A stretch of DNA of 38,158 nt, from NCBI GenBank assembly GCA_031264545.1, contig JAISDV010000055.1, forward strand, positions 1 to 38,158. The letters are read 5' to 3'. The DNA comes from Oscillospiraceae bacterium (GTDB taxonomy: Bacteria; Bacillota; Clostridia; Oscillospirales; Oscillospiraceae). A model generated the notes under the pieces. The model had not been told where the DNA came from, did not search any database, and saw only the letters and a program-made list of their open reading frames with translations. How positions within the stretch are numbered: position 1 is the first letter of the stretch; every line of letters begins with the position of its first letter. Positions 1-9,943 of this stretch are shown here, in pieces. The translations under genes were made by a program, and so were the position numbers.

Positions 1-53
1 AGAAAGAGAAAGCCGTCCTCCGCCGGCATAGCGTAAGAAGGAGGAACAACACT

Positions 54-824
54 ATGATCACTGCAGGAATCGATTGCGGCAGTCAGAACACCAAGGGCGT
101 CGTCCTGAAAGACGGAAAGCTCGCCGGCAAGGCGCTGCTCCCAACGGAGTTCGACGCGGATCTGGCCGCGCAGAGGGTTTTGGAACAGGCCCTGAGCGAC
201 GCCGGCGTTAAGCGGGAGGATGTCGGCCGAATCGTCATTACCGGCGTTGGGCGCGACATCATCAAATGGGGAGACAGTGAGATCAACGAGGTCGGCGCGG
301 CGGCCAGGGGCGCAAGGTTTGCCGTTCCCGACACGGACACTGTGATCGATATGGGCGCGGACAGCTGCCGTGTCATCCGCCTCAACGCGGACGGAAGCAT
401 CGTCAAGTATGAGGTCAACGACAAATGCGCCTCCGGCGCCGGAACCTTCATCGAGGCGATGGCCCGCGCGCTTCAGATCGAAACCGAGGAAATGGGCGAT
501 TTTTCGCTCCGCCATTCAAAAGAGCTTGCTACCAACGCTCAGTGCGTTGTTTTCGCCGAGTCCGAGGTCATCTCTCTGATCCACGCAAAGGAGTCCAGAG
601 AGGACATCGCTTACGGCGTACATATGGGCATAGCCAATCGCGTCGCTTCGATGATCCGCAGGGTCGGGCTGACCGAGCATTTTTCGATGATCGGCGGACC
701 CGCGTACAACAAGGGTCTTGTCAGCTGTATGTCCAAGGTTTTCGGAAAAGAGATCACGGTGCCCGAAAACAATCAGTATCTGAACGCGGTCGGCGCGGCG
801 ATCTTTGCCGCTGAGAATCAGTAA
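54..824 (+). CDS. bzdP: Class I benzoyl-CoA reductase activator/ATPase subunit, BzdP/BcrD-like (BadF/BadG/BcrA/BcrD/HgdC ASKHA family)
   Basis: 256 aa; N-term GIDCGSQNTKGVVL phosphate-binding motif; VNDKCASGAGTF and NAQCVVFAESEV carry the two Cys typical of HgdC-family [4Fe-4S] activators; RBS aaggagg upstream. Confidence 0.85.
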   Translation: MITAGIDCGSQNTKGVVLKDGKLAGKALLPTEFDADLAAQRVLEQALSDAGVKREDVGRIVITGVGRDIIKWGDSEINEVGAAARGARFAVPDTDTVIDMGADSCRVIRLNADGSIVKYEVNDKCASGAGTFIEAMARALQIETEEMGDFSLRHSKELATNAQCVVFAESEVISLIHAKESREDIAYGVHMGIANRVASMIRRVGLTEHFSMIGGPAYNKGLVSCMSKVFGKEITVPENNQYLNAVGAAIFAAENQ

Positions 825-839
825 ACGGAGGATAAGACC

Positions 840-1730
840 ATGGCTGAAATTGAAAAAGTTGAATATTGGAGATGGACCGAGTCCAACTGGAAAAATCCTG
901 ACATTCCCGATTGGCGCGGAAGCCTTATTACGGCCGGCGTCGACATCGGCTCGACCAGCACGCAGGCGGTCGTCATGGCAGACGGCGTGCCCTACGCCTA
1001 TTCCAACATGCGTACGGGCTCGAACAGCCCCGACTCCGCGATCGGCGCGATCGACTGGGCCATGAAGGATACCGGATTGACACTCGAGGACATTACTTAT
1101 ACAATAGGAACAGGCTACGGCCGTGTCAACGTTCCCTTCTCCAACAAGACCGTGACCGAGATCACCTGCCACGCAAAGGGCGCAAATTACATATACGGGC
1201 CCACGATACGCACCATTCTCGACATGGGCGGACAGGATTGCAAGGCCATCCACTGCGACGCAAAGGGCGCCGTTACCTCCTTTATGATGAACGACAAGTG
1301 CGCTGCCGGAACAGGCCGCGGCATGGAGGTCATCGCAAACCTGCTGGCCGTCCGCGTCGAGGACATCGGCGATATGTCCTTCCAGATCGACGAGGAGCCG
1401 GATCCCGTTTCTTCCACCTGCGTTATCTTCGCGAAGAGCGAGGCAACGAAGCTCATGCGCACCGGCTGGACAAAGGAAAAGGTGCTTGCCGCTTACTGCC
1501 ACGCCATGGCCCTGCGCGTCGTCCGCCTGCTCGAACGCAACGGGATGGAGCTCGATTTCGCCATTACCGGCGGCATCGCCAAAAATGTCGGCGTCGTCCG
1601 CCGCATCGAACGTATCATGGGCATCCAGGCGCTCAAGCCCGCGATGGATACGCAGATCGCCGGCGCGCTGGGCGCCGCCCTGCTCGGAAAAGAGCTTGTC
1701 GAGAAAAAGCGCGCCAAGGAAAATCAATAA
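840..1730 (+). CDS. bzdQ: Class I benzoyl-CoA reductase activator/ATPase subunit, BzdQ/BcrA-like
   Basis: 296 aa; GVDIGSTSTQAVVM, YAYSNMRTGSNSPDSA, IGTGYGRVNVPF, LDMGGQDCKAI, MNDKCAAGTGRGMEV, SSTCVIFAKSEA, AITGGIAKNVGVV; size and motifs fit Bzd-type Q subunit. Confidence 0.88.
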   Translation: MAEIEKVEYWRWTESNWKNPDIPDWRGSLITAGVDIGSTSTQAVVMADGVPYAYSNMRTGSNSPDSAIGAIDWAMKDTGLTLEDITYTIGTGYGRVNVPFSNKTVTEITCHAKGANYIYGPTIRTILDMGGQDCKAIHCDAKGAVTSFMMNDKCAAGTGRGMEVIANLLAVRVEDIGDMSFQIDEEPDPVSSTCVIFAKSEATKLMRTGWTKEKVLAAYCHAMALRVVRLLERNGMELDFAITGGIAKNVGVVRRIERIMGIQALKPAMDTQIAGALGAALLGKELVEKKRAKENQ

Positions 1731-1790
1731 TCAGTCTGTACGGGACGCCGGGCGCCGGCGTAAAACACGGCGCGGAAGGAGGCTAAGGTC

Positions 1791-2066
1791 ATGCTAGCGC
1801 ATTACGGCTATGAAGATGGTTCCGGCCACTACTACATCAGGCTCGACACCGCGAAGTGTGCAGAATGCCCCGAAAAAGGCTGCATCAGCGCCTGTCCGGA
1901 GCAGCTCTTCGCAACGGAGCTGGACGATTTCGACGACGAGGTGGTCCTTATCAGGGAGGCTGCCCGCAACACCCTGCAAGCCAGCTGCGCGAGCTGTAAG
2001 GCAAACGGCGAAATGGAGCTCTGCAGAAGCGTCTGCCCTGCGGACGCGATCGGCTTCTCCTGGTAG
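1791..2066 (+). CDS. Two-cluster 4Fe-4S ferredoxin-like protein, probable electron donor to the reductase
   Basis: 91 aa; CAECPEKGCISACP (C-x2-C-x4-C-x3-CP) and CASCKANGEMELCRSVCP (C-x2-C-x8-C-x3-CP); located between activator and catalytic genes. Confidence 0.75.
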   Translation: MLAHYGYEDGSGHYYIRLDTAKCAECPEKGCISACPEQLFATELDDFDDEVVLIREAARNTLQASCASCKANGEMELCRSVCPADAIGFSW

Positions 2067-2171
2067 GAGAGCCGGACCTTGAATTTTGACTCGTCTCCGA
2101 GTGGCGTTCGGGGCGGGATTGAAATTATTATCCCTAAGAATTTATCCCTAAGAATTTAAAGGAGGAGACAC

Positions 2172-3287
2172 ATGAGTTACGAAAAATTACTCGAAACCAA
2201 CATTTCAGGCGAATCCGCAAAAGCCTGGAAAGCGTCCGGCAAAAAGGCAGTCGGTTATGTCTGCTGCCACGTTCCCACGGAAATCCTGATCGCGGCCGAC
2301 GTGATGCCCGTTCGTCTCAGAGCAACGAATTGCGTGGACAGCAGCGACGCCGAGGCCTGGATGTCCAGCTTCAGCTGCAGCTTCGCAAAGTCGGTCCTTC
2401 AATATCTGATGAACGGAACCTATGACCTGGACGGACTGGTACAGTCCGACGGCTGTATGATGGCCACGCGTATTCTCGACAACTGGTCGCATATTGCAAA
2501 GAAAAACGGCAAGGCCCAGTTCATCCATCAGATCGGCGCCCCCCGCATCACCAATGAAATTTCCATCGGCTACTACAAGGCTGAGCTTCAAACGCTCGCC
2601 GACAAGCTCGGCGCGTTCTCCGGCAAGGCCGTCACAGACGAGGGTCTCAAATCCGCCGCGGCCAAGACGAATGAGGTCCGCGGCCTTATCGCCCAGCTTT
2701 TCACGCTGCGCAAGGAGGCCAAGGTCTCCGGAACCGAGGCGCTCAGGATCATGCTCGCAAACTGCGACCTGACGATCGACGAGTATATCGCCGCGCTCGG
2801 GGAATTCATCGCCGACGCGAAGGGCCGCGGACCCATTAAAGCGCGCGCGCGTCTGATGATGATCGGCTCCGCGCTCGACAATCCCGAATACATCAGGGTC
2901 ATCGAGGACAAGGGCGGCCTGGTGGTCGCCGACGCGCTGTGCTTCGGCGCCAGATCCTTCGGTGAAAAGCTCGTGATCGACGACAAGGACGTTCTCGGCT
3001 CTATCGCGGACTACTATCTCACCCGCAACACCTGCCCCCGCGCGCTGGACAACCGTCCCGCCATTCACAAGGAAATCGTCGACACCTGTAAGGCGTACGA
3101 CATTCAGGGCATCATCTATGAGAAAATGCAGAACTGCGAATGCTGGGGCGGCGAATCCTATTATCTTGAGCCCGATCTCAAGGCGATCGGCGTTCCGATG
3201 CTGCAGGTCGAGCGCGAGGAGCAGATGGCAAACGCCGGACAGCTCGCTATCCGCGCGGAAGCCTTCGTGGAAATGATAGAAAAGTAA
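2172..3287 (+). CDS. bzdN: Benzoyl-CoA reductase/2-hydroxyacyl-CoA dehydratase family subunit, BzdN/BcrC-like
   Basis: 371 aa; CCHVPTEILIAADVMPVRL, QSDGCMMATRILDNW, EKMQNCECWGGESYYLEPDLKAIGVPMLQVEREEQM; RBS aaggaggag; adjacent to BzdO-like. Confidence 0.85.
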   Translation: MSYEKLLETNISGESAKAWKASGKKAVGYVCCHVPTEILIAADVMPVRLRATNCVDSSDAEAWMSSFSCSFAKSVLQYLMNGTYDLDGLVQSDGCMMATRILDNWSHIAKKNGKAQFIHQIGAPRITNEISIGYYKAELQTLADKLGAFSGKAVTDEGLKSAAAKTNEVRGLIAQLFTLRKEAKVSGTEALRIMLANCDLTIDEYIAALGEFIADAKGRGPIKARARLMMIGSALDNPEYIRVIEDKGGLVVADALCFGARSFGEKLVIDDKDVLGSIADYYLTRNTCPRALDNRPAIHKEIVDTCKAYDIQGIIYEKMQNCECWGGESYYLEPDLKAIGVPMLQVEREEQMANAGQLAIRAEAFVEMIEK

Positions 3288-3303
3288 GAAGGAGGAATAT
3301 ATC

Positions 3304-4617
3304 ATGGCAACTCAGAATTTTGATCCTACGAAGCCGGTCAATATGATAGATCTGACCTGTAATCAGGTCGACAGCATTTACCAGCATATGCTTTCAAAGG
3401 GTATGCCTGAAGTCATGTGGACGGTCGACATTCAGAAATATGTCTGGGAAGAGGTCCGCGACGCAAAAAAGAACGGTAAAAAGCTTATCGCTTTCGGCGG
3501 ACCCGTACCCGTGACGATTATCCGCGCCTTTGACTGCATACCCTTTTTCCTCGATACGATCCCGACGCGTATTGCCTCCATGGAGGATCTCGCCGGCCGT
3601 TATATCGACGAGACCGAGAAGTACGCGCCCACCAGCACCTGCGCGATCGATAAGGTCCAGATAGGCGTCGCGCTCAAGGGCGAATTCGGAATCGACATCG
3701 ACGCATTTGTCCACGCGACCGTCCCCTGCGACTCCGCGCGCATCGCTTATCCCATGATGGAGCGCCTGTTCGGCTGCCCCTGTTTCACCTTCGACTGTCC
3801 CTTCCGTCACGATGAAAAGGGTTATGCCTATCTGGCCCAGCAGATCGAGGCCTTCATCCCCTTTATGGAAGAGCTCACGGGCCTCAAATGGGACGCCGGG
3901 CGTTATGAGAAATTCAAGGGCATTATGGAAGAGTCCAATAAGGCCTTCGATCTGCTTACACAGCTCGGCGATCTGCGCAAAAAGACCCCTTGTGTGCTGC
4001 CCGGCCGTATGCTCGTCCTCAACGAGATCGTCGCGCCGCTGGCCGGCACGGAAGCGTGCACCGCGATGCTCCAGACCCAGCTCGAGATGGGCAATATGCT
4101 CGCGGATATGGGCATGACGGCCACCAGGTGCCCCGAGGAGCGCTACCGCGTCTGTTTGATGCAGAACATGCTCTGGTCGAATACCGGCATCATGGACTGG
4201 ATGGAAAAGTGCTACGGTGCGATCACCGTTATGGATGGGTTCGGTTATCAGGACGGCGTCATTTTCGACGACCTCGACAATTGGGAGCGCGTGAAAATGC
4301 AGACTGCCGAGTCTATGCTTCTGACGCCGATGATCCACGGCGCGACCGGCCCGACCGAATACTGGCTCAAGGTCATCGATAAGATGTACGAGGACTACAA
4401 GGTCAACGTCTCCATCTTTATGGGACACGTCGGCTGCAAGCACACCTGGGCCTCCGGCAAGATCGTGACCGACTATATCCAGCAGAAGTTCGGCATCCCC
4501 ACCCTGTACGTCGACGTCGACGCGATCGATCCGCGCTACAAGTCCAACGACGAGCTCCGCGCCCAGATCGGCGAATATTTCGAGAGCGTTGTCGGTGCAG
4601 AAAATTTCTGCAAATAA
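3304..4617 (+). CDS. bzdO: Benzoyl-CoA reductase/2-hydroxyacyl-CoA dehydratase family subunit, BzdO/BcrB-like
   Basis: 437 aa; APTSTCAIDKVQIG, ATVPCDSARIAYPMMERLFGCPCFTFDCPF, SIFMGHVGCKHTWASGKIVTDYIQQKFGIPTLYVDVDAIDPRY; size matches O/B subunit. Confidence 0.85.
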   Translation: MATQNFDPTKPVNMIDLTCNQVDSIYQHMLSKGMPEVMWTVDIQKYVWEEVRDAKKNGKKLIAFGGPVPVTIIRAFDCIPFFLDTIPTRIASMEDLAGRYIDETEKYAPTSTCAIDKVQIGVALKGEFGIDIDAFVHATVPCDSARIAYPMMERLFGCPCFTFDCPFRHDEKGYAYLAQQIEAFIPFMEELTGLKWDAGRYEKFKGIMEESNKAFDLLTQLGDLRKKTPCVLPGRMLVLNEIVAPLAGTEACTAMLQTQLEMGNMLADMGMTATRCPEERYRVCLMQNMLWSNTGIMDWMEKCYGAITVMDGFGYQDGVIFDDLDNWERVKMQTAESMLLTPMIHGATGPTEYWLKVIDKMYEDYKVNVSIFMGHVGCKHTWASGKIVTDYIQQKFGIPTLYVDVDAIDPRYKSNDELRAQIGEYFESVVGAENFCK

Positions 4618-4670
4618 GACCCCGTGTTTATAGCCTGAAACGCCGTCTGAGCGTTTGAAAAACCGCAAGG

Positions 4671-4702
4671 CCCCGGCCGCGGCCATCCTGCTGCGGCCGG
4701 GG
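4671..4702 (+). other. GC-rich hairpin in bzdO-cooC intergenic spacer
   Basis: ccccggccgc ... gcggccgggg perfect 10-bp arms, 12-nt loop; no following T-tract. Confidence 0.6.
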
Positions 4703-4752
4703 GTGAGGCGAGAGTCATTCATATTATTCATATTGGAAAGCGAGGACAAGAA

Positions 4753-5514
4753 ATGGATAAAATCAGGTCTATTGCCGTGACAGGAAAAGGCGGAACCGGC
4801 AAAACTGTCGTCTCCACGCTCATTATCCGCCTGCTCGCGGAGCGTTTCCCCGGCAAGGTGCTCGCGATTGACGCGGACTCCGCCATGAGCCTGTGCTATA
4901 CGACCGGACTGCCCGTCGAAAAAACCGTCAGCCGGCTCCGTTCCGAGCTGCTGGGCATGCGCCAGGCCAGGGATGAGCTGAACAGCGGCCCGACCAAGGA
5001 TCTTATGCGCGGAATACTCGCCCATGGAGACGGCTTCGACCTTCTCACCATGGGCCGTCCCGAGGAACCGGGCTGCTTCTGCGCCTGCAACGAGCTTCTC
5101 CGCTTCGGGATCGACAGTCTTGCGGGAGATTATGAGTACGTTATTATTGACGGCGAAGCGGGTCCCGAACAGCTCAACCGCCGCGTTATGAAAAGTGTCG
5201 ACTGCCTTCTGGTCATGGCCGATATGTCGGCCAGAAGCCTGCAGACGGCCGCCGGCATTATCGCAGTCGCCAAAGCCGGCGAGAACAACATTGATGTCAA
5301 GACCACCGGGCTTGTCCTCAACCGCGTCCGAAATGACCAGCCCAAGGAGGCGCTTGTCAAAAAGGTCGGGCTGGAGATTTTCGGCGAGCTTCCCGAGGAC
5401 GCCGAGGTCAATAAATATGACCGCGACAACAGGTCCCTGTTCGATTTACCCATGGAGAGCGCCTGCCCGCAGGCCGTGCTTGCCATCCTGAAGAAGCTGA
5501 TCCCCGAATTCTGA
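4753..5514 (+). CDS. CooC-like MinD/ParA-family P-loop ATPase
   Basis: 253 aa; deviant Walker A GKGGTGKT, LAIDADSAMSL, GRPEEPGCFCACNELLR (CooC-type CxC), EYVIIDGEAGPEQLNRR. Confidence 0.82.
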   Translation: MDKIRSIAVTGKGGTGKTVVSTLIIRLLAERFPGKVLAIDADSAMSLCYTTGLPVEKTVSRLRSELLGMRQARDELNSGPTKDLMRGILAHGDGFDLLTMGRPEEPGCFCACNELLRFGIDSLAGDYEYVIIDGEAGPEQLNRRVMKSVDCLLVMADMSARSLQTAAGIIAVAKAGENNIDVKTTGLVLNRVRNDQPKEALVKKVGLEIFGELPEDAEVNKYDRDNRSLFDLPMESACPQAVLAILKKLIPEF

Positions 5515-5537
5515 TCCCCCGAAAAGGAGTACCCGTT

Positions 5538-5918
5538 ATGCACAGTGACGAAAAAGACTATGCGGCAGCCGGCTTTCACGTTCACGCGGACGGGACGGCG
5601 CACAGCCACGGCTGTGCGCACGCGCACGGGGCCGGACCCGGCCACACGCATTCCCACGTCCATACGAACAAGAAGGCGGTCCATGACCGGCTTGCCAAAG
5701 CGCGGGGGCATCTGGATTCCGTTATCCGGATGATCGATGATGACAGGGACTGCTCGGAAGTGCTGGTTCAGCTCGCGGCGGTGCGGTCGGCGATAAACAA
5801 TGCCGGAAAGGTTCTGCTGCAGGATCATATCACGGAGTGCATAACAGAGGCCATAAGGGACGACGACCGGCAGAAGATCGCGGATCTCAATAAAGCGATC
5901 GAGCAGTTTATGAAGTAA
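5538..5918 (+). CDS. CsoR/RcnR/FrmR-family (DUF156) metal-sensing transcriptional repressor with His-rich N-terminal extension
   Basis: 126 aa; RLAKARGHLDSVIRMIDDDRDCSEVLVQLAAVRSAINNAGKVLLQDHITECI core; 11 His in first 42 residues; RBS aaaggag. Confidence 0.85.
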   Translation: MHSDEKDYAAAGFHVHADGTAHSHGCAHAHGAGPGHTHSHVHTNKKAVHDRLAKARGHLDSVIRMIDDDRDCSEVLVQLAAVRSAINNAGKVLLQDHITECITEAIRDDDRQKIADLNKAIEQFMK

Positions 5919-5942
5919 GGCCTTTCTTTAAAAAGCAGCTTA

Positions 5943-5974
5943 CGCGGCGCGCCGGCGGTGTCCGGCGCGCCGCG
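5943..5974 (+). terminator. Hairpin downstream of csoR-like gene, possible terminator without clear T-tract
   Basis: cgcggcgcgccgg cggtgt ccggcgcgccgcg, perfect 13-bp arms. Confidence 0.45.
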
Positions 5975-6247
5975 CTTCGCCTGAAGCAAGCCGCCGAAGG
6001 ACGCCCGGCGGTTTGGAACTGATGGCCAAAAACCGCAGGCCTGTAACGTTAAAGATGACTAAAAAACTTACGAGCTGATTTATAGTATGTACAAAGATTT
6101 GCGGCAAGCCGGAATTTGGATTGCATTTATATACCAATTAGTATAAGATTATAATAATTTAGCGGAGGATAGCCGTGTACCTGCCATAGAAACGCGTATC
6201 CGGTGTGTGGCTGTCCGCTCGGTAGAATTATGAGAAGGAGTTTTACT

Positions 6248-7618
6248 ATGGCAGTTAAGAATTTGAGCGCCGATTGGAAAAAGCATTATCAGGATCACTT
6301 GGTAAGCATGGCCGACGCCGCGAAAGCCGTTTTGCCCGGCGACGTATTTTGGCTGGGACAGGCCTCAATAACGCCTTATCCTCTGCTGGAGGAGTTGTAC
6401 GCGCACATGGAAGACTATCATGACGTCACTTTGCTCTACAACGTCATGAACCAGCCCGCATCCATGGTTTTTGACACTGAAACCAAAAAGCATTTCAAGA
6501 TGGTATCCGCTTACTGTCTGCCTGTGGAACGCATGGCCATCGACATGAACACCATCGAGCCCGGCGGGTGTACCTATGATGCGCTCCATCGTTCCGTCTT
6601 TGCGCAAGGCTGCAACGCGCTTGCGCTGCACGTAGCGCCTCCCGACGAGAACGGCTGGTGCAATGTTACCGCCTACGGCGTCTCAACCAACCAGATCATC
6701 AACCAGGACCCCCGCATTGAAAAGAAAATTTGCTTTATCGACCGCACGGGCGTTTTTCCGGTTCCCGGCCCCCATGAGACGCACTATATACACGTGTCCG
6801 AGATGGACTATATCTGTGAGGCCGATACCGAGCCCACTTTCATTCCTTCTCCGCTGTCGACCGACGTCGACGAGAAGATCGCCGCTTTCGTTATGCCCTT
6901 TATCAAGCCGGGCGACAACGTGCAGATCGGCTACGGCGGCCTGGGCGAAGAGATCCTCAGAAACCTCCGAAAAACCGAAGGGTCTTTCTCGGTTTATTCC
7001 GAGGTCGCCTGCGATAACATGCAGGATCTCGTTGAAGAGGGCAAGCTCACGAAGATCGTTGCCGCCAGCCCCGGCACCTGCTCCGAAAAGTTCTTTACGT
7101 TCATGCGCAACGACCCGCGCATTGAGCTGCGCGGGCAGCAGTACATGATCAACCCGCTGAGCGTCATGCACTGCGAGAATCTTGTCGCCATCAACGCCAC
7201 TTTCCAGATTGATCTGCTTGGCCAGGCCTGCTCGGAGGCTCAGGGACTCAAGCCTTTCACCGGCCCGGGCGGCTCTTTCGCCTATCTTTACGGCGCAATC
7301 CTCGCGAAAAACGGCCGCAGCTTCCTCTGTCTGCGCTCGACCTATGTTGATCACGACGGTGAGCGGCACTCCAATATCCACGCGTGGCTGCCCGAGGGCT
7401 GTATCGTGACCACCCCAAAGGTCTATGTCATGTACCTTGTTACCGAGTGGGGCGTTGCGGACGTCTTCCTCAGGAGCCTGAAGGACCGCATCCGGGCCGT
7501 CCTCAAGATCGCGCACCCTGATTACAGGCAGGAGCTGAAGGACAAGATCGTCACGACGCCGCTGATCAAGGAAGACGATTTTGTGGACTACGATCTGTTC
7601 GACAATCTTCCGAAGTAA
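6248..7618 (+). CDS. Family-I CoA-transferase / acetyl-CoA hydrolase family (4-hydroxybutyrate/butyrate CoA-transferase-like)
   Basis: Start chosen at ATG 6248 with RBS agaaggag; VYSEVACDNMQDLVEEG (candidate catalytic Glu), GPGGSFAYLYGA, ATFQIDLLGQACSE. Confidence 0.78.
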   Translation: MAVKNLSADWKKHYQDHLVSMADAAKAVLPGDVFWLGQASITPYPLLEELYAHMEDYHDVTLLYNVMNQPASMVFDTETKKHFKMVSAYCLPVERMAIDMNTIEPGGCTYDALHRSVFAQGCNALALHVAPPDENGWCNVTAYGVSTNQIINQDPRIEKKICFIDRTGVFPVPGPHETHYIHVSEMDYICEADTEPTFIPSPLSTDVDEKIAAFVMPFIKPGDNVQIGYGGLGEEILRNLRKTEGSFSVYSEVACDNMQDLVEEGKLTKIVAASPGTCSEKFFTFMRNDPRIELRGQQYMINPLSVMHCENLVAINATFQIDLLGQACSEAQGLKPFTGPGGSFAYLYGAILAKNGRSFLCLRSTYVDHDGERHSNIHAWLPEGCIVTTPKVYVMYLVTEWGVADVFLRSLKDRIRAVLKIAHPDYRQELKDKIVTTPLIKEDDFVDYDLFDNLPK

Positions 7619-7682
7619 GGCGCGTTTTCCAGCGTTTTTGTCATAAACGGCTTGGCCGGCAATATTTTTACGGAGGCGTACC

Positions 7683-7967
7683 ATGGTTATCTGCAATTGC
7701 CTTTTCACCAGCGAGACGACCGACATGAAAGATTTTTACCCGATCCTTTGCAGCGAGGGGCTTGTCGAAGGCTCCCGCGCCGACAAGGGAAACATCCTGT
7801 ATGATTTCTACATCAGCGCCGACGACCCAAAGCGCATGATGCTCATCGAAAAATGGGAGAGCATCGACGACCTGCAGGCACATTCCGAAACCGAGCTTTT
7901 CCAGAAATTCCGTCCCGTCTGCAAAGCGAGCGGCGTCAGAACCAAGCTTGCGATGTACGAGGAATAG
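7683..7967 (+). CDS. Small ABM-domain (antibiotic biosynthesis monooxygenase-fold) protein
   Basis: 94 aa; MMLIEKWESIDDLQAHSET...F pattern typical of the YgiN/ABM dimeric alpha-beta fold; RBS ggagg. Confidence 0.65.
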   Translation: MVICNCLFTSETTDMKDFYPILCSEGLVEGSRADKGNILYDFYISADDPKRMMLIEKWESIDDLQAHSETELFQKFRPVCKASGVRTKLAMYEE

Positions 7968-7994
7968 CGTCAAGCACCGCGGCGGCACAGCGTC

Positions 7995-8042
7995 CGCGCA
8001 GCAAAAGAGCGGGGCCCGATGGCCCCGCTCTTTTGCTGCGCG
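7995..8042. terminator. Bidirectional terminator between convergent genes
   Basis: cgcgcagcaaaagagcggggcc cgat ggccccgctcttttgctgcgcg, perfect 22-bp arms, 4-nt loop. Confidence 0.85.
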
Positions 8043-8047
8043 AACTG

Positions 8048-9943
8048 TCAGTATCCGAACCCTTCGCCGGTAACGGCCGCTTTCTCGCCGGTCGTGATCT
8101 CGCGGCTCTCGCCCATGGTGCTGAGCGCGATCCCGGTGTTTTCCGTGACCCACGCGGCAGAACGCGCGGCGCTCCGCGTGAGCGTGGTATAAAAGTGGTC
8201 GAACGCGTAGCCGCCGTCGCTCCTGCGCTGTGAGACGGCGAAATTGAAGGTGCAGTCATACACGCCGCTGTAATACGCGTCGTCTGTAACGAGCCAGATC
8301 TTGCCGAGATAGCCGTCGTCAATGTCGGGAACGATGCAGTCCGTATACAGCGCGTAAGCCTGCTCCGCGCTCAGCCAGTACTCGCTGTACTCGCCCGTCT
8401 CTTTGTCAAAGTAGTTGAGGAAGGCGTCCGAGATGGCGCCGGGGGTAACCGGTATCGAGATGTTCTTGCGGTCATTGACCGCCTCGGGGACATTCAGCAG
8501 CGCGTTCAGCTCGTCAACCGTCGTCCCTGAGCTGAGGAAAATCGTGTAATTCCTGGAAAGCGTACGCGCGTCCTTATAAAAATATGTGATTTGAACACCG
8601 TAGGCGGGGGACAGATCAAAACCGGCGGCTTTACGCTCGTTTATGTCCTTTTGGGCAATGATCTCTCCGTGCAGGGCGATCAGAGCCCCGATATTATCCG
8701 CTTGTTCGAAATTCACCGATTGCCCGTTGCAGGATACCGATACGCGCTCCAGCCTGTCCGCAGCCGGAAGCTTTCGTTCGATCCCGAAAACATCGAACTC
8801 GCCGCAGAACATCAGCGCGGCGATGATAACGGCGGCGGCGCCCAGATGCAGCCAATTTTTCCGGTTGAAAACGCGGAGGGTCTTCCGCATCAGCATCTCG
8901 GCGGCAAAATAGCCGACGAAAGCGCCGAACAGCATAAACAGCAGCATGTAGACCATGCGCGCAATGCCGTAGGTCTCAGAGCCGAAGACGGCCGTGTATA
9001 TCAAAAGACCGATCACAAGCGCGCAGCCGAAGCTCAGGCAATACTTGAAAACCGGCTTGAGTGGCTTGACCGCGACGACGTCGCCGGCCGTCTCCATGCG
9101 GCGGCGCCTGATCAGCTGCACCGCGGCCAGAGCGCAGAACAGGCCGGCGGCGCCATAGCAGATGAGGGCCGTCCAGCCGTCGTAAAAGCAGCCGATCTCA
9201 ACGCTTCCGCCATCCGCAAGCCTCTCCAGAATCCCCCGCACGGACGTTCTGTCGAGGATATGCACCGGGGGAGAAAGCGGCGACAAAACAAGGCTGCCAC
9301 GCACACTGACACCGTAAATAAACAGACTCATAGCGGTCCGGACAAGGTATTCCACCACATACACCGTAAAGTTCAGCACGGCGTATACCAGCGGCAGCAC
9401 GAGCACATGCCCGGTCAGGCTCGCGCAGAGCGCGGCAAAGCCGAAATAAAACAGCCCGAAAAGGCAGGTCATCGCGAACCACTGGAGGACGAAGCCGGCC
9501 AGGGCGGGAAGCCCGTAGGCCGAGACGACGCCTATGGTCACGAGGGCGATAACGGCGTTGCCCGCGAACAGCCAGAACAGCCCGGAGCCGAACAGCGAAA
9601 GGAAAACGCCCTCGCGCCTGATCGGCAGGGAGCAGTACATTGAAACGCTGCGCGCGGTATAAAGATAGCTGAAAGCGGCCATCGCGAGGATAAGCGCGAA
9701 ACCGGCGGACAGGATGAGCCCGCCGTACAGGCCGGCCTCGAGAATGTTCTGTCCGGCCCGGGCGAGCAGGACCCGCAGATTCCCGCCTAAGAAATCGTCG
9801 ATAAGATAATATTGAAGATTGTTGGCCGTCGCGACGGGCAGAACAACGAGCCAGACGGCGACATATGCCGCCAAAATCGGCCAGAAGCGCCTGGGAAGCT
9901 CAAAAAACAAGGTCCTGTTAAAGAATGATGTCTTTGATTTCAT
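8048..9943 (-). CDS. ABC-2-type transporter permease
   Basis: Polytopic membrane protein; start taken at MKSKTSFFNRTLFFELPRRFWP with upstream gggaggcgag RBS; overlaps the end of the ATPase gene. Confidence 0.75.
   Translation of the reverse strand: MKSKTSFFNRTLFFELPRRFWPILAAYVAVWLVVLPVATANNLQYYLIDDFLGGNLRVLLARAGQNILEAGLYGGLILSAGFALILAMAAFSYLYTARSVSMYCSLPIRREGVFLSLFGSGLFWLFAGNAVIALVTIGVVSAYGLPALAGFVLQWFAMTCLFGLFYFGFAALCASLTGHVLVLPLVYAVLNFTVYVVEYLVRTAMSLFIYGVSVRGSLVLSPLSPPVHILDRTSVRGILERLADGGSVEIGCFYDGWTALICYGAAGLFCALAAVQLIRRRRMETAGDVVAVKPLKPVFKYCLSFGCALVIGLLIYTAVFGSETYGIARMVYMLLFMLFGAFVGYFAAEMLMRKTLRVFNRKNWLHLGAAAVIIAALMFCGEFDVFGIERKLPAADRLERVSVSCNGQSVNFEQADNIGALIALHGEIIAQKDINERKAAGFDLSPAYGVQITYFYKDARTLSRNYTIFLSSGTTVDELNALLNVPEAVNDRKNISIPVTPGAISDAFLNYFDKETGEYSEYWLSAEQAYALYTDCIVPDIDDGYLGKIWLVTDDAYYSGVYDCTFNFAVSQRRSDGGYAFDHFYTTLTRSAARSAAWVTENTGIALSTMGESREITTGEKAAVTGEGFGY

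What the first reader, a model, noticed from the sequence alone, without database searches (positions are those of the whole stretch)
4753..5918. CooC-like ATPase and CsoR-like metal sensor linked to the reductase genes
Seen: cooC-like gene (GKGGTGKT, GCFCACN) follows bzdO and is followed 23 bp later by a CsoR-family gene, all on one strand. Known: CooC is an ATPase associated with Ni insertion into CO dehydrogenase; CsoR/RcnR proteins sense Cu, Ni or Co. I do not know of a defined role for either in class I benzoyl-CoA reductase. Inference: a metallocluster maturation or metal-supply module for this reductase, or an ATPase helping activator recycling; no CODH gene is present in the window.
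Basis: partly seen in the sequence, partly recalled or inferred. Interest (0 to 1): 0.62.

Follow-up and report, generated by a model that had tools for sequence, protein, structure and literature searches.

The report
Nickel-chaperone-like ATPase partnered with iron-sulfur reductase
A gene for a CooC-type ATPase, a protein known for putting nickel into carbon monoxide dehydrogenase, is here tied to a quite different iron-sulfur reductase in bacteria that have no carbon monoxide dehydrogenase, which suggests that a whole branch of these ATPases matures another class of enzyme.

Summary
In detail: a CooC-like ATPase (4753-5514) and, 23 bp on, a His-rich CsoR/InrS-like gene (5538-5918) follow a BCR/2-hydroxyacyl-CoA dehydratase-family reductase operon. 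The hgdN-hgdO-cooC order recurs in nine other genomes of this lineage and two of another family; csoR belongs to the cassette only in this lineage. Nine of ten cassette genomes, one rated 100% complete, have no CO dehydrogenase or acetyl-CoA synthase, so cooC is not for a CODH elsewhere. The genome's second cooC also sits in such a reductase operon. Reductase-linked CooCs form one branch (support 96/89) apart from CODH- and ACS-linked ones. Nearly all their N subunits carry the six cysteines matching BzdN's [8Fe-9S] double-cubane ligands; a cooC-less dehydratase in this genome has four. Most likely this CooC is a dedicated maturation ATPase for the adjacent reductase. Its cargo is open: nickel is possible but unproven, and BzdNO gets its double cubane in E. 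coli without a supplied cooC. 'Class I benzoyl-CoA reductase' is only partly supported: BzdQ passes its cut-off, the catalytic subunits do not, and the proton-donor His131 is Ala.

The parts
54..824 (+). activase 1 (BadF/BcrA-type ATPase subunit)
   Evidence: TIGR00241 225.8 bits over cut-off 125.4; PF01869
840..1730 (+). activase 2, BzdQ-type
   Evidence: TIGR03192 benz_CoA_bzdQ 404.2 bits over cut-off 380.2
1791..2066 (+). ferredoxin-like electron donor, 91 aa
   Evidence: weak Fer4 matches below the gathering score; conserved in place in the cassette of nine genomes
2172..3287 (+). hgdN, HGD-D subunit with the six cysteines C31, C69, C95, C257, C288, C322 aligned to BzdN's
   Evidence: PF06050 240 bits; best solved relative BzdN 8s02; cysteines
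3304..4617 (+). hgdO, HGD-D subunit with C113, C142, C378 and Ala145 at the place of BzdO His131
   Evidence: PF06050 190 bits; best solved relative MbdO 9g87; residues
4671..4702 (+). conserved covarying intercistronic hairpin between hgdO and cooC
   Evidence: 14-bp stem in nine species, 95.8% of cells paired, 5 pairs with changes on both sides, 0/500 shuffles reach the covariation score; position
4753..5514 (+). cooC-like MinD-type ATPase; Walker A G11-T18, metal-site candidates C108 and C110
5538..5918 (+). csoR/InrS-like sensor; His-rich N terminus (11 His in the first 42 residues), ligand candidates C72, H97, C101
6248..7618 (+). CoA-transferase (acetyl-CoA hydrolase/transferase family), 1-3 copies in relatives
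   Evidence: PF13336 139.9 bits; TIGR03948 166 bits, below cut-off
7683..7967 (+). ABM-domain protein, last gene of the conserved cassette
   Evidence: PF03992 43 bits

Best explanation
The CooC-like protein is a client-specific maturation (metal- or cluster-loading) ATPase for the two-subunit iron-sulfur reductase encoded just upstream, not a CODH accessory protein. By analogy with CooC1, ATP binding and hydrolysis by a MinD-type dimer would open and close a metal site made by C108 and C110 of each monomer at the dimer interface, and so hand a metal ion or cluster fragment to apo-HgdNO; the paired activases then energise electrons from the ferredoxin for catalysis. The His-rich CsoR/InrS-like protein is a lineage-specific addition that most likely senses or buffers the same metal. 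Shown here: conserved gene order, a dedicated CooC branch, absence of CODH/ACS, conserved motifs. Inferred: the physical client, the cargo and the direction of transfer.
For: hgdN-hgdO-cooC order in 10 genomes of this lineage wherever the sequence continues and in two genomes of another family. Second cooC of the same genome again beside an HGD-D pair. In G340 three CooC paralogues each lie beside their own enzyme system. 17 genomes with reductase-linked CooC have neither CODH nor ACS. One branch of reductase-linked CooCs, 96/89, one label change. Walker A and CxC invariant. Six double-cubane-type cysteines in nearly all CooC-linked N subunits.
Against: BzdNO, with the double cubane, is made in E. 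coli from a plasmid described as carrying bzdNO alone (PMC11971306), so HGD-D enzymes do not generally need CooC. CODH iron content does not depend on CooC (PMC6006190). The L157 subtype has CooC but only three of the six cysteines. No interaction or metal data exist for these proteins; adjacency and phylogeny are circumstantial.
Confidence: 0.62

Rival explanations
1. Nickel module: CooC and CsoR together are a Ni insertion and Ni sensing pair, and the reductase or one of its clusters contains Ni or another heterometal (a special case of the best explanation).
For: The known cargo of CooC is Ni at the CxC site; the CsoR keeps the three InrS Ni ligands and a His-rich N terminus; csoR of this type clusters with CODH/ACS loci in the family, 20 of 92 listed copies within 10 kb of a CooC against about 1.5 expected. 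HypA/HypB in the isoprene reductase operon are a published parallel (PMC10134865).
Against: No Ni is known in any BCR/HAD-family enzyme; all conserved cysteines are accounted for as Fe-S ligands of BzdN/BzdO type; csoR is missing from G340 and from the C101-type loci; C-H-C ligands also suit Cu(I).
Confidence: 0.17
2. Electron-transfer or activator role: the ATPase works like NifH, passing electrons to the reductase or recycling the activator.
For: Fold matches include NifH and BchL; PF00142 weakly matched; HGD-D enzymes need ATP-driven electrons.
Against: The operon already has two activases of the right family. The protein has the CooC CxC pair, but no conserved cysteine about 35 residues on, where NifH/BchL carry their second [4Fe-4S] ligand (NifH spacing from general knowledge).
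Confidence: 0.08
3. CooC serves another metalloenzyme of the cell (CODH, ACS, hydrogenase or an unrecognised one) and is only parked in this operon.
For: CooC is known from CODH maturation; L052's genome does have CODH and ACS; this MAG is 87.9% complete.
Against: No CODH or ACS in nine of ten cassette genomes, including G003 at 100% and G109 at 98% completeness; no [NiFe]-hydrogenase in this assembly; where CODH exists it has its own CooC branch.
Confidence: 0.1
4. Chance neighbours kept by recent common ancestry, without functional link.
For: Most cassette genomes are of one genus-level lineage.
Against: The order is kept at 81-90% CooC identity while outer flanks and CoA-transferase number vary, is found again in another family, and the CooC belongs to a reductase-linked branch.
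Confidence: 0.03

Closest known systems
CooC1 of Carboxydothermus hydrogenoformans (3KJE/3KJG/3KJH/3KJI), Ni-inserting ATPase of CODH
   Same: Length, deviant Walker A, CxC metal-site pair, E 6.5e-15 over residues 7-205
   Different: Genome context is an HGD-D reductase, not CODH; belongs to a separate reductase-linked branch; most host genomes lack CODH and ACS
InrS, Ni-responsive CsoR/RcnR-family repressor of Synechocystis (5FMN)
   Same: PF02583 domain, C-H-C ligands, His-rich N terminus
   Different: Sits in a reductase operon with no metal exporter beside it; no operator found; metal unknown
BzdNOPQ class I benzoyl-CoA reductase (8S02 and relatives)
   Same: Two different activases with ferredoxin, BzdQ over cut-off, six N-subunit cysteines aligned
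   Different: N and O subunits far below the BzdN/BzdO equivalog cut-offs; Ala for His131; extra cooC, csoR and CoA-transferases
2-hydroxyacyl-CoA dehydratases (HadBC, 3O3M)
   Same: HGD-D fold family, CoA-transferase next door, Ala at the His131 place
   Different: HadC lacks two of the six N-subunit cysteines; dehydratases use a single activase (general knowledge)
Double-cubane cluster protein DCCP (6ENO)
   Same: N subunit scores best of the HGD-D equivalogs on NF040772 (153 bits)
   Different: Below the cut-off of 350; heterodimeric here, homodimeric in DCCP; CooC linkage not described in the paper consulted
Isoprene reductase operon of Acetobacterium wieringae (HypA, HypB) (PMC10134865)
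   Same: Ni-chaperone genes co-located with a reductase not known to need Ni
   Different: Different chaperones and a different, flavin-dependent reductase

Membership tests
CooC family (MinD-type metallochaperone ATPase) | Deviant Walker A GKGG(V/T)GKT | tested here: met
   GKGGTGKT, invariant in the aligned set
CooC family (MinD-type metallochaperone ATPase) | CxC pair (Cys112/Cys114 of CooC1) for the interfacial metal | tested here: met
   C108 and C110 align
CooC family (MinD-type metallochaperone ATPase) | Sequence similarity to CooC1 over most of its length | tested here: met
   3kje, residues 7-205, E 6.5e-15
CooC family (MinD-type metallochaperone ATPase) | Encoded with, or in a genome that has, CODH or ACS | tested here: not met
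   None in this assembly or in eight of nine cassette relatives. Hence filed as CooC-like, not as a CODH accessory protein
CooC family (MinD-type metallochaperone ATPase) | Binds Ni(II), one per dimer, and hydrolyses ATP slowly | not testable with these tools
   needs purified protein
NifH/BchL electron-transfer ATPases | Two separate conserved Cys per monomer for the bridging [4Fe-4S] | tested here: not met
   No conserved Cys about 35 residues after the CxC pair
CsoR/RcnR/InrS metal sensors | PF02583 domain | tested here: met
   90.6 bits over 22.8
CsoR/RcnR/InrS metal sensors | X-Y-Z ligands Cys-His-Cys | tested here: met
   C72, H97, C101 align with InrS Cys53, His78, Cys82
CsoR/RcnR/InrS metal sensors | Membership of a named equivalog (RicR, FrmR, RcnR) | tested here: not met
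   42-48 bits against cut-offs of 133-175
CsoR/RcnR/InrS metal sensors | Operator near its target promoter | tested here: inconclusive
   No conserved G-tract palindrome seen in the aligned intergenic regions; no systematic operator search
Class I benzoyl-CoA reductase, Bzd type | BzdQ-type activase paired with a second activase and a ferredoxin | tested here: met
   TIGR03192 over cut-off; second activase TIGR00241; ferredoxin only by weak Fer4 matches
Class I benzoyl-CoA reductase, Bzd type | BzdN and BzdO equivalogs | tested here: not met
   BzdN 122.5 against 453.8; BzdO model not hit
Class I benzoyl-CoA reductase, Bzd type | Six cysteines for the [8Fe-9S] cluster in the N subunit | tested here: met
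   All six aligned cysteines present; that these are the ligands in BzdN is read from the paper's count of six and the alignment
Class I benzoyl-CoA reductase, Bzd type | Proton-donor His131, three residues after Cys128 of BzdO | tested here: not met
   hgdO has C142-D-S-A145; Ala is the HadB state according to PMC11971306
Class I benzoyl-CoA reductase, Bzd type | Reduces benzoyl-CoA | not testable with these tools
   needs an enzyme assay

The most novel reading that the evidence does not exclude
A branch of CooC metallochaperones builds or loads a nickel- or other heterometal-containing cluster in BCR/HAD-family double-cubane reductases, which would make these the first Ni (or heterometal) members of that family.
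Probability: 0.17. Interest if true: 0.88.

Novelty: new variant of a known kind. Interest (0 to 1): 0.6.

Why it matters
In the papers read here CooC is a CODH nickel chaperone, and no dedicated maturation factor is mentioned for the double-cubane or aqua-[4Fe-4S] clusters of the BCR/HAD family. A distinct CooC branch that travels with such reductases in CODH-free genomes gives a concrete candidate and a simple co-expression test. It also warns that annotating these genes as CODH accessory proteins, or using cooC as a marker of CO metabolism, would be wrong in these genomes.

Tried and rejected
CODH elsewhere as client: rejected after PF03063 and TIGR01702 searches. PF03063 alone was misleading: most hits in relatives are hybrid-cluster-protein-sized (about 545 aa) and score only 20-38 bits on the CODH model. 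ACS as client: rejected for 17 genomes. [NiFe]-hydrogenase as client in this assembly: none found. Rfam on 1-9000: nothing at gathering threshold, so no known Ni/Co riboswitch there. Foldseek of the CooC model (pLDDT 83) is uninformative about subfamily: the top 50 are MinD, FleN, NifH and kin, CooC1 is not listed. Literature for CooC with HGD-D, double-cubane or benzoyl-CoA reductase: no paper describing the link was found in the open-licence library; subscription papers are not held. The idea that the CooC link always marks a double cubane was given up because the L157 subtype keeps only three of the six cysteines. A phmmer-based annotation first counted L055 and L059 beside G003 and G109; they are the same records and are counted once.

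Full report
WHAT IS THERE. The window is one whole contig (C165) of a 1.79-Mb MAG, 87.9% complete. From its first bases it carries activase 1, a BzdQ-type activase, a ferredoxin, two HGD-D subunits (here hgdN, hgdO), cooC, csoR, a CoA-transferase and an ABM protein, all on the + strand. CooC's best solved relative is C. hydrogenoformans CooC; CsoR's is InrS.

HOW FAR THE ORDER IS CONSERVED. The closest CooC homologues (81-91% identity) come from nine other genomes. Wherever the sequence continues, hgdO precedes cooC and csoR follows it. L055/G003 and L059/G109 are the same records and are counted once. The number of CoA-transferases (1-3) and the outer flanks vary. A class-level search with hgdO found a complete genome of another family, G340, with activase 1, BzdQ-type activase, hgdN, hgdO, cooC and a CoA-transferase, and no csoR. 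A second genome of that genus, G551, has hgdN-hgdO-cooC at a contig end, so its csoR cannot be judged. CooC is therefore the conserved partner and csoR a lineage-specific one. The cassette is rare: 2 of 391 class genomes had an hgdO match at E <= 1e-30, the window's own being one of them.

THE SECOND COOC. The assembly has one other CooC, 38% identical, on contig C101. It also follows an HGD-D pair and precedes an activase and a protein with weak, sub-threshold similarity to the ACS CdhC domain. Related 'C101-type' loci occur in about ten family genomes and in G340 and G452. In G340 three CooC paralogues each lie beside their own system: this reductase, the C101-type reductase and CODH/ACS.

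NO CODH TO SERVE. Prismane-family hits in relatives are mostly of hybrid-cluster-protein size; on the CODH model TIGR01702 they fall far below the cut-off. Of the 10 cassette genomes only L052's has a true CODH and ACS. This assembly, G003 (100% complete), G109 (98%) and six more have neither; nor do eight genomes with the C101-type CooC. This assembly also shows no [NiFe]-hydrogenase.

A SEPARATE BRANCH. In a maximum-likelihood tree of 80 CooC proteins labelled by their neighbours, the 26 reductase-linked ones are one side of a branch with 96% ultrafast bootstrap and 89% SH-aLRT, apart from the CODH-linked and ACS-linked ones; the label needs one change. Of the 26, most have HGD-D genes within 2.5 kb, five have only the activase or CdhC-like gene there, and one (L059) lies at a contig edge and was added by its position. 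Long branches and a midpoint root are caveats. Walker A and CxC are invariant; C112 is an extra cysteine of this lineage only.

THE CLIENT. hgdN keeps six cysteines that align with BzdN's, where six cysteines hold the [8Fe-9S] cluster, and so do the N subunits of C101-type loci; this genome's cooC-less dehydratase on C172 and HadC keep only four. The L157 subtype is an exception with three. hgdO keeps three cluster cysteines but has Ala where BzdO has the proton-donor His131, the dehydratase state. With BzdN and BzdO scores far below cut-off, 'class I benzoyl-CoA reductase' should be weakened to 'BCR/HAD-family, probably double-cubane, acyl-CoA reductase of unknown substrate'.

THE SENSOR. C72, H97 and C101 match InrS Cys53, His78 and Cys82, the residues needed for Ni binding there. 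The first 42 residues hold 11 His. Among genomes of this family with a CooC, 20 of 92 listed csoR genes lie within 10 kb of one, against about 1.5 expected; 17 of these are not this cassette, and those inspected are CODH/ACS loci (listed rows only, so a lower bound). That ties this csoR type to nickel-enzyme loci, but C-H-C ligands also suit Cu(I).

REGULATION. Seven relatives (L052-L057, L060) have a sigma-54-type promoter, TGGCA(C/T)-N5-TTGCT, upstream of activase 1, 83-86 bp before it in the five measured. The window's contig starts too late to show it, but the same site ends contig C178 of this genome. That contig carries two further HGD-D pairs and abuts the window at the expected spacing (the join is inferred). 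Between hgdO and cooC lies a 14-bp stem conserved in nine species with compensatory changes. A likely, untested role is to set a lower yield of cooC/csoR than of the reductase.

MECHANISM AND LIMITS. The best reading is a dedicated maturation ATPase for HgdNO. The cargo is open. CooC's known cargo is Ni and its absence does not affect CODH iron, which speaks for Ni. No HGD-D enzyme is known to me with Ni, and BzdNO acquires its [8Fe-9S] cluster in E. coli from a plasmid described as carrying bzdNO alone, which speaks against both Ni and a general need for CooC. CODH itself shows that closely related enzymes differ in CooC dependence (PMC13056359). Only experiments on metal content with and without CooC can decide.

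Noticed in passing
L017 (G000:C101) 3-5104; L072, L085, L100, L154, L156: A second, wider CooC-linked system: HGD-D pair with a long O subunit, activase and a 240-300 aa protein with weak CdhC (ACS beta) similarity ending in a conserved C-x2-C-x5-C; it lacks the ACS C-terminal domain. Function unknown.
   Followed up: partly
L161 (G000:C178:31000-32033) 984; upstream of window 1: Sigma-54-type promoter at the end of contig C178, same as upstream of activase 1 in seven relatives; contig C178, with two more HGD-D pairs, probably abuts the window start.
   Followed up: yes
window 4671-4702: Hairpin between hgdO and cooC, conserved and covarying in nine species, without a T run; possible mRNA-stability or expression-balance element.
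   Followed up: partly
L157 9259-11704, L158: A third CooC-linked HGD-D subtype whose N subunit keeps only three of the six cysteines and whose O subunit has His for the last cluster cysteine.
   Followed up: no
L159 7404-10137: Three CooC-like genes in a row in G549 with no CODH, ACS or HGD-D gene detected in the 15 kb fetched.
   Followed up: no
L127 12229-13571: In G340 two opposite-strand ORFs that look like a broken transposase lie between the activase and catalytic genes, and no ferredoxin was detected there; acyl-CoA ligase and thiolase genes precede the cassette.
   Followed up: no
L019 (G000:C172) 6798-9939: A separate HadBC-like pair with an activase and no cooC in the same genome; useful internal control.
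   Followed up: partly
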